Made by a program: the position numbers and the translations under genes
In this document: positions 49,601 through 50,308 of the stretch, piece after piece
Position numbering within the stretch: position 1 is the first letter of the stretch
Layout: the number at the start of each line of letters is the position of its first letter
Origin: Deltaproteobacteria bacterium
Lineage (GTDB): Bacteria > Desulfobacterota > DSM-4660 > Desulfatiglandales > HGW-15
NCBI GenBank assembly: GCA_016932235.1
Contig: JAFGDF010000150.1
Span: 1 to 51,731 of the forward strand
Reading direction: 5' to 3'
DNA: 51,731 nt
The notes under the pieces: model-generated
What the model was told of the DNA's origin: nothing
Databases searched by the model: none
What the model saw: only the letters and a program-made list of their open reading frames with translations

Positions 49601-50308
49601 ATGAAAAAATTTTCAGCTAAGGTGACAATACCTTTTTTTCTTTTTCTATTCTGTTTTAATGCCATATCGGCTGAAAAGATAACAGGGCCGAAAATGCTTA
49701 TTGAAGAAACGTTATTTGATGCTAAAGAGGTCCTGGAAGGTGATATAATCCAACATACTTTCAAGATTCTTAATATCGGCGATCAACCTCTTGAGATAAA
49801 AAACATCCGCCCGGGGTGAGGCTGCTCGGTGGCCCGTTTCAGCAGGGTCATACCCCCCGGCGGGGAGGGATGGATAAGTTTGAGTGTCAACACAAGGAAT
49901 TATAGCGGCCGCACTACAAAAAGCGCAACGGTTTATTCCAATGATCCTGAAAATTCAACCATTCGATTGATCATCAGGGCGACTATAAAACTATTGATAG
50001 ATTTATCCAAAAAAACCGTCTATCTCAGGGGTAATGAAGGAGAAGAGATCAGCGCAACGATTACCGTAAAAACAAAAGAGCCCGAGCCGTTGAATCTTGA
50101 GTTTAATGATTTTACCCTTTCCGATAAGGTCCGATTCGGAATCGAGGAAATAGAAGAAGGCAAAACATTTAATCTGCATTTCTCAATCATACCTGGTCTT
50201 GTGGGAAGACATAAAGGAGTTTTGAGCCTCAGGACAAATTATCCCCAAAAACCTTCCATATCAATACCTGTTTTAGTTCAAGTTAACAGGAAAAGGGAAC
50301 TCCCTTGA
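49601..50308 (+). CDS. DUF1573 exported protein, probable selenoprotein (in-frame UGA)
   Basis: One continuous frame of 235 codons interrupted only by TGA at 49817-49819 (codon 73). A signal peptide (about 1-24, ending NAISA-E) and an Ig-like DUF1573 strand (about 45-70, TFKILNIGDQPLEIKNIRPG) come before it. GCSVARFSRVIPPGGEG and a second domain follow it. DUF1573 proteins normally read P-x-C-G-C-T-V here, so the TGA stands exactly for the first Cys, and Cys75 is kept. A hairpin with bacterial SECIS geometry follows. Readthrough as selenocysteine is inferred; a nonsense mutation is the alternative. AGGGG precedes the ATG. rnhA overlaps or abuts its 3' end. Confidence 0.78.
49817..49854 (+). 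promoter_or_regulatory. UGA codon with candidate bacterial SECIS hairpin
   Basis: After the TGA come 11 bases, then GGCCC (49831-49835), a 9-base loop GTTTCAGCA (49836-49844) and GGGTC (49845-49849), a 5-bp stem with one G-U pair. GGT (49828-49830) can extend it to ACC (49852-49854) across a 2-base bulge. The apical loop begins 16 bases after UGA and starts with G, both features of bacterial SECIS elements recognised by SelB. The fold is by eye. Confidence 0.6.

What the first reader, a model, noticed from the sequence alone, without database searches (positions are those of the whole stretch)
49601..50308. Exported DUF1573 selenoprotein: UGA in place of the first Cys of the C-G-C motif
Seen: the two flanking open frames are in the same frame (49601 and 49829 differ by 228 bases) and a single TGA at codon 73 separates them. 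The residues around it read P-G-[UGA]-G-C-S-V, where DUF1573 proteins usually have P-x-C-G-C-T-V. The second Cys, the signal peptide and the downstream domain are intact, with no other frame damage. Known: UGA replacing a conserved Cys next to a second Cys is the classical sign of a selenoprotein, and deltaproteobacteria are selenoprotein-rich. Inference: a U-x-C redox or metal site in a periplasmic protein. I am not aware of an established selenoprotein in this family.
Basis: partly seen in the sequence, partly recalled or inferred. Interest (0 to 1): 0.92.

Follow-up and report, generated by a model that had tools for sequence, protein, structure and literature searches.

The report
Known-family DUF1573 (OS_HP2) selenoprotein gene
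An unidentified bacterium, probably of the sulfate-reducer group, carries a gene with a UGA codon that is almost certainly read as selenocysteine in an exported protein; the reading is right, but this selenoprotein family was already described in 2007-2008.

Summary
In detail: one frame, 49601-50308, with a single in-frame TGA at 49817-49819 (codon 73) in P-G-U-G-C-S-V, inside a DUF1573 domain. Selenocysteine is the best reading. Of 80 related loci, 79 have TGA at this codon and one has Cys; all 80 keep the Cys two residues on. Of 19 non-UGA copies aligned, 16 have Cys at the site. A hairpin after the UGA is stronger than synonymous recodings give, and stronger than in non-UGA genes. Each of 40 related genomes has selB over cut-off or a strong tRNA-Sec hit. 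The window's own genome is not held, so its Sec machinery is untested. The family is known: NCBIfam NF041425 'OS_HP2_seleno' matches above its cut-off, and papers list DUF1573 with a UGC/UxC motif. It is a divergent member of a known selenoprotein family of unknown biochemical function, most likely an envelope U-G-C redox protein on an Ig-like scaffold. Reading of UGA as Cys by a selC*/SelB* system is unlikely but not excluded here.

The parts
49601..50308 (+). OS_HP2/DUF1573 selenoprotein gene, 235 aa with Sec at 73
   Evidence: translation; PF07610 E 1.4e-18; NF041425 105.7 bits, cut-off 100
49601..49672 (+). signal-peptide-like N-terminus (about residues 1-24)
   Evidence: read from the translation; low-pLDDT helix 9-19 in the model; no signal predictor was run
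49817..49819 (+). UGA codon read as selenocysteine (residue 73)
   Evidence: TGA at this codon in 79 of 80 related loci
49823..49825 (+). partner cysteine codon (residue 75)
   Evidence: Cys in 80 of 80 loci and in 27 of 27 UGA loci among a further 30
49829..49851 (+). bSECIS-like hairpin: stem 49829-49835 / 49845-49851, 9-nt loop 49836-49844 starting GU, loop 16 nt after the UGA
   Evidence: fold (not beyond plain shuffles); synonymous-recoding z -3.3 for codons U+4..U+12; pair counts
49700..49984 (+). first Ig-like (DUF1573/ASH-type) domain, residues 34-128, holding U73
   Evidence: Pfam; model mean pLDDT 92.6; structure matches
50018..50287 (+). second Ig-like domain, about residues 140-229
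   Evidence: strands in the model; no Pfam family over its cut-off here
48789..49505 (+). rex-type redox-sensing repressor, upstream neighbour
   Evidence: PF02629 + PF06971; relatives as upstream neighbour in 12 of 80 neighbourhoods, the window included
50305..50760 (+). RNase HI, downstream neighbour, adjoining the selenoprotein gene
   Evidence: PF00075 E 5e-49; relatives downstream in 12 of 80 neighbourhoods, the window included

Best explanation
The gene is a member of the known OS_HP2 (DUF1573, UGC motif) selenoprotein family. Shown: the UGA sits where relatives have UGA or mostly Cys, within one continuous conserved domain. Inferred: Sec-tRNA-Sec is brought by SelB, which binds the hairpin just downstream of the UGA; the full-length protein is exported by its signal peptide. 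In the model residue 73 sits in the turn between two strands of the first of two Ig-like domains, two residues from C75. Inferred mechanism: U73 and C75 form a reversible selenenylsulfide, so that the protein acts as an envelope thiol/selenol redox protein, for example reducing or isomerising a partner's thiols or removing oxidants or electrophiles. The redox step and the partner are unknown; I give redox about 0.6 and soft-metal binding about 0.25 as the role of the U-G-C site.
For: Codon 73 is TGA in 79 of 80 loci (best 80 of 162 relatives found, a set biased to UGA forms by its query) and the second Cys is kept in 80 of 80; 27 of 27 UGA loci among a further 30 keep it too. In one order 69 of 81 family matches contain one in-frame TGA, 12 none, and no other stop occurs. 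In a second order 88 of 99 matches contain a TGA. Non-UGA copies have Cys at the site in 9 of 12 and 7 of 7. The hairpin is favoured over synonymous recodings: mean z -2.45 in 79 UGA genes, -0.95 in 12 non-UGA genes, p 3e-4, best of four stretches tried; window -3.3. It pairs 83.7% of cells against 28.9-49.3% when slid, and cells paired and covariation score are reached by 0 and 1 of 500 shuffles. selB over cut-off in 33 of 40 genomes, against 2 of 14 control genomes; tRNA-Sec at 69 bits or more in 32 of 40, by my count; none of the 40 lacks both. NF041425 matches over cut-off. Many database relatives start just after the UGA position, as truncation by gene callers would give; their DNA was not seen.
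Against: The window's genome is not held, so selA/B/C/D are untested in it. Plain dinucleotide shuffles of single windows show no excess folding (z -0.58 to +1.0). The number of pairs with a change on both sides does not exceed shuffles (308 of 500 as high; 384 of 500), and the 42-row subset was chosen after seeing that another group shifts the stem by a base. The sequences are related, so the p value is optimistic. G065 carries a UGA copy but no selB hit at E 1e-60, and 7 of 40 genomes have no selB over the cut-off. Genomes with non-UGA copies only (G057, G058) still have selB, so there is no negative control by genome. Three non-UGA copies have Thr, Ser or Trp at the site. I saw no peptide or 75Se evidence in the passages read.
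Confidence: 0.92

Rival explanations
1. UGA is read as cysteine, not selenocysteine, by the opal selC* tRNA-Cys with its own SelB*, a system reported in Desulfobacterales and Syntrophobacterales.
For: The system is described in PMC7609411 (passages). I found a tRNA-Sec-like gene beside a second selB in 7 of 40 genomes that carry this gene family, with UCA anticodon in 5, including G004 and G005, whose best copies are 46% and 45% identical to the window's protein.
Against: The other 33 of the 40 genomes show no such pair among the listed hits; the loci of 32 of these 33 are UGA forms. G055, G061, G062 and G069 have 3 to 5 copies with a TGA and a single selB hit at E 1e-60. A tRNA-Sec hit of 69 bits or more is present in 32 of 40.
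Confidence: 0.04
2. The UGA is a true nonsense mutation; the gene is a pseudogene or makes only the 72-residue and/or a restarted 159-aa product.
For: A GTG follows 9 bases after the UGA, and predicted proteins of many relatives start at the matching place. Single-window folding is not beyond plain shuffles.
Against: The same codon is TGA in 79 of 80 loci, while coding conservation runs across it and no other stop is seen in the aligned stretch except in L065; no TAA or TAG stood at the site in the loci read.
Confidence: 0.02
3. Other recoding of UGA (Trp or Gly, tables 4 or 25).
For: Two database relatives (P0006, P0008) show Trp at the site; whether this is TGG or a table-4 translation is not known to me. 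One genomic copy has TGG there (L124).
Against: TGA ends 19 of 50 larger ORFs in the window; Cys is the usual substitute.
Confidence: 0.01

Closest known systems
OS_HP2 family (seleno)protein, NCBIfam NF041425; DUF1573 selenoprotein of Zhang and Gladyshev 2007 (as cited in PMC9312934)
   Same: PF07610 domain, U-G-C motif, matches the model at 105.7 bits against a cut-off of 100; listed as OS_HP2, pfam07610, UxC in PMC2398784 (passage) and as DUF1573, UGC in PMC9312934 and PMC13188914 (passages).
   Different: Only sequence divergence that I can see: nearest genomic relative found is 49% identical, nearest database fragment 73%.
DUF1573 proteins with C-G-C (PF07610)
   Same: Same domain; Cys at the Sec position.
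   Different: No UGA; the hairpin signal is weaker on average.
HYDIN/CFA65/VesB-type Ig (ASH, MSP-like) domains
   Different: A shared fold shows no function; I did not look for a C-G-C motif in these chains.

Membership tests
OS_HP2 (seleno)protein, NF041425 | curated whole-protein score of at least 100 bits | tested here: met
   105.7 bits, E 1.2e-30, residues 35-129
OS_HP2 (seleno)protein, NF041425 | U-G-C (UxC) motif in a PF07610 domain | tested here: met
   U73-G74-C75; PF07610 67.2 bits, cut-off 26.1
bacterial selenoprotein | in-frame UGA conserved among homologues and aligned with Cys in others | tested here: met
   79 of 80 TGA; Cys in 16 of 19 non-UGA copies aligned
bacterial selenoprotein | bSECIS hairpin close behind the UGA | tested here: met
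   synonymous-recoding z -3.3 in the window, mean -2.45 in 79 genes; plain shuffles gave nothing; no bSECIS predictor was available
bacterial selenoprotein | selA, selB, selC, selD in the same genome | not testable with these tools
   no genome held for the window; related genomes: selB 33 of 40 over cut-off, tRNA-Sec 36 of 40 over the Rfam cut-off, which 5 of 14 controls also pass; selA and selD not searched
bacterial selenoprotein | selenium at residue 73 | not testable with these tools
   needs mass spectrometry or 75Se labelling
selC*/SelB* UGA-to-Cys decoding | selC* tRNA and second selB in the same genome | not testable with these tools
   host genome not held; the only tRNA in the window is tRNA-Ser

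The most novel reading that the evidence does not exclude
In genomes that hold both systems, the same UGA in OS_HP2 genes is read as Sec by SelB/tRNA-Sec or as Cys by SelB*/selC* tRNA-Cys(UCA), depending on selenium supply, making these genes natural substrates of the selC* system.
Probability: 0.05. Interest if true: 0.75.

Novelty: new member of a known kind. Interest (0 to 1): 0.22.

Why it matters
It shows that the UGA reading was right and that predicted proteins of this family are often cut at the UGA: many database relatives begin just after it. The family is a large, often multi-copy selenoprotein group in Desulfobacterota-type genomes (up to 5 matches per genome), for which I found no biochemical function in print (three held papers name DUF1573). 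In some genomes it lives beside a second SelB/tRNA system, which makes Sec versus Cys decoding directly testable.

Tried and rejected
Whole-code change: rejected, TGA is a normal stop in the window. UAA used as a Sec codon: one search listed TAA stops in three matches of G122 and G123; reading the DNA showed Cys at the site in two of them and UGA in the third; the one TAA seen in those alignments (L157, codon 238, three residues from the end) looks like the normal terminator. Functional partner by gene neighbourhood: neighbours differ between subfamilies and look housekeeping-like by my reading (only the window's were scanned with Pfam), so no partner is named. Solved relatives by sequence: none at E up to 1; fold matches only give the Ig-like scaffold. 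Other selenoproteins in the window: one search listed nine TGA read-through candidates, this gene among them; the other eight did not look convincing to me and were not scanned with family models. The tree is the quick one; the careful search was not finished. Papers: passages only were seen of PMC9312934, PMC13188914, PMC2398784 and PMC7609411; the 2007 paper is not held.

Full report
OBSERVATION. The frame from ATG 49601 to the stop at 50306-50308 holds one in-frame TGA at 49817-49819, codon 73, in P-G-U-G-C-S-V. PF07610 (DUF1573) matches residues 34-128 at E 1.4e-18, across the UGA. The gene lies between a rex-type repressor (PF02629, PF06971) and RNase HI (PF00075). TGA ends 19 of 50 larger non-overlapping ORFs in the window, so it is a normal stop there.

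RELATIVES. A protein search gave 44 proteins, one of them the window's own 159-aa fragment. About half are 150-170 aa long, and most of those begin at the first start codon after the UGA position, as expected when a gene caller stops at it (their DNA was not seen); full-length relatives show C-G-C or similar, or in two cases W-G-C. A scan of genome contigs with a 10-sequence alignment found 162 relatives and kept the best 80. The alignment was made mostly from such truncated relatives, so the set is biased towards UGA forms. Opposite codon 73, tblastn found TGA in 78 of 80; L022 has it one column off; L049 has TGC. Cys two residues on is kept in 80 of 80. L065 has a second in-frame stop three codons upstream.

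A LESS BIASED COUNT. The NCBIfam model NF041425 over the 39 held genomes of the order of G027 (the genome of Desulfoferrobacter suflitae, L034) matched 33 genomes and 81 places: 69 with one TGA inside, 12 with none, no other stop. The window protein over the 85 held genomes of the order of G017 matched 68 genomes and 99 places: 87 with one TGA, one with two TGA and a TAA, 9 with none (three of which do not reach residue 73), and two with TAA only. In these two counts the place of the TGA was checked only where the DNA was read. Nine places were read: Cys at the site in seven, UGA in two, no TAA at the site. Of 30 loci, 27 have TGA with Cys at +2, two TGC, one ACA. Of 13 non-UGA copies given (L049 and the 12), 12 aligned: 9 Cys, 1 Thr, 1 Ser, 1 Trp. 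In four of those nine Cys copies the partner Cys is lost; in the seven it is kept; it was never lost in a UGA copy that I read.

HAIRPIN. After the UGA the window can form a 7-bp stem, 49829-49835 with 49845-49851, closing a 9-nt loop that begins GU, 16 nt after the UGA. The distance and the loop G fit what I recall of bacterial SECIS rules (no call). Plain dinucleotide shuffles of single windows gave no excess (z -0.58 to +1.0). Shuffling synonymous codons within each gene, which keeps the protein, gave mean z -2.45 for codons U+4 to U+12 in 79 UGA genes, -0.95 in 12 non-UGA genes (Mann-Whitney p 3e-4, the best of four stretches tried; the others gave 0.007, 0.22 and 0.002), and -3.3 in the window. 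Windows away from the site average -0.35 to +0.37. The genes are related, so the p value is optimistic. Two non-UGA copies keep strong hairpins (L126 -2.5, L123 -2.63), perhaps relics. On 60 of 79 sequences the stem pairs 73.3% of cells, 31.7-49.8% when slid; on a 42-sequence subset, chosen after seeing that another group shifts the stem by a base, 83.7% against 28.9-49.3%. There, cells paired, cells changed on both sides and covariation score are reached by 0, 4 and 1 of 500 shuffles, but the number of pairs with two-sided change by 308 of 500.

SEC MACHINERY. The window's genome is not held. In 40 genomes behind the loci, selB is over its cut-off in 33, against 2 of 14 control genomes. tRNA-Sec is over the Rfam cut-off in 36 of 40, but 5 of 14 control genomes pass that cut-off too; counting only hits of 69 bits or more in the table, an ad hoc line, gives 32 of 40, and no genome of the 40 lacks both. 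In 34 further genomes selB is present in 32; G065 has a UGA copy without a selB hit at E 1e-60, and the two genomes with only non-UGA copies (G057, G058) still have selB. selA and selD were not searched.

RIVAL DECODING. Seven of the 40 genomes have a tRNA-Sec-like gene beside a second selB, anticodon UCA in five and GCA in two. This matches the selC* tRNA-Cys / selB* system described in PMC7609411 (passages read, which cites Mukai 2017). It could in principle put Cys at UGA. The other 33 genomes show no such pair among the listed hits, and the loci of 32 of them are UGA forms, so Sec is the general reading, but for the window this is not decided.

KNOWN OR NEW. NCBIfam NF041425 'OS_HP2 family (seleno)protein' matches at 105.7 bits, cut-off 100. 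PMC2398784 (2008, passage) lists OS_HP2, pfam07610, UxC. PMC9312934 (2022, passages) lists DUF1573, UGC, citing Zhang and Gladyshev 2007, whose paper is not held. PMC13188914 (2026, passages) lists it again. This is a divergent new member of a known family.

Noticed in passing
L130-L136 (G004, G005, G011, G014, G016, G028, G029) and L137-L139, L141-L145: tRNA-Sec-like genes near a second selB; ARAGORN anticodon UCA in L130-L134, L139, L141, L142 and GCA in L135-L138, L143-L145; none found beside the second selB of L140. They fit the selC*/selB* system of PMC7609411; the passages I read do not name its target genes.
   Followed up: partly
L136:1197-1781 and L145:9567-10067: Next to the GCA tRNA and second selB lies a short ORF with a CCxWCSY motif that looks to me like the FrhD/MvhD hydrogenase iron-sulfur subunit (my reading, no family search); a possible target of that system.
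   Followed up: no
L130:4021-5298, L131:3673-4950, L134:1-1113: An ORF resembling 2-hydroxyacyl-CoA dehydratase-type proteins (my reading, no family search) lies beside the second selB in three genomes.
   Followed up: no
L083 (G011:C402): The second selB of G011 shows a TAG inside the match.
   Followed up: no
P0006, P0008: Metagenome proteins with Trp at the Sec position; could be TGG or a table-4 translation of TGA. DNA not seen.
   Followed up: no
L126 (G057), L123 (G055): Copies with Thr or Cys at the site that still show a strong hairpin, perhaps relics of a lost Sec site.
   Followed up: partly
50946-51728: Downstream ORF starting with a zinc-ribbon-like CPKC...CPKC and running into acidic repeats, open at the window end; relatives lie downstream in 12 of 80 neighbourhoods including the window.
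   Followed up: no
L037 and 22 other loci, first downstream gene: In 23 loci, mostly of another subfamily, a HAD-phosphatase-like gene (my reading) lies directly downstream of the selenoprotein gene.
   Followed up: no
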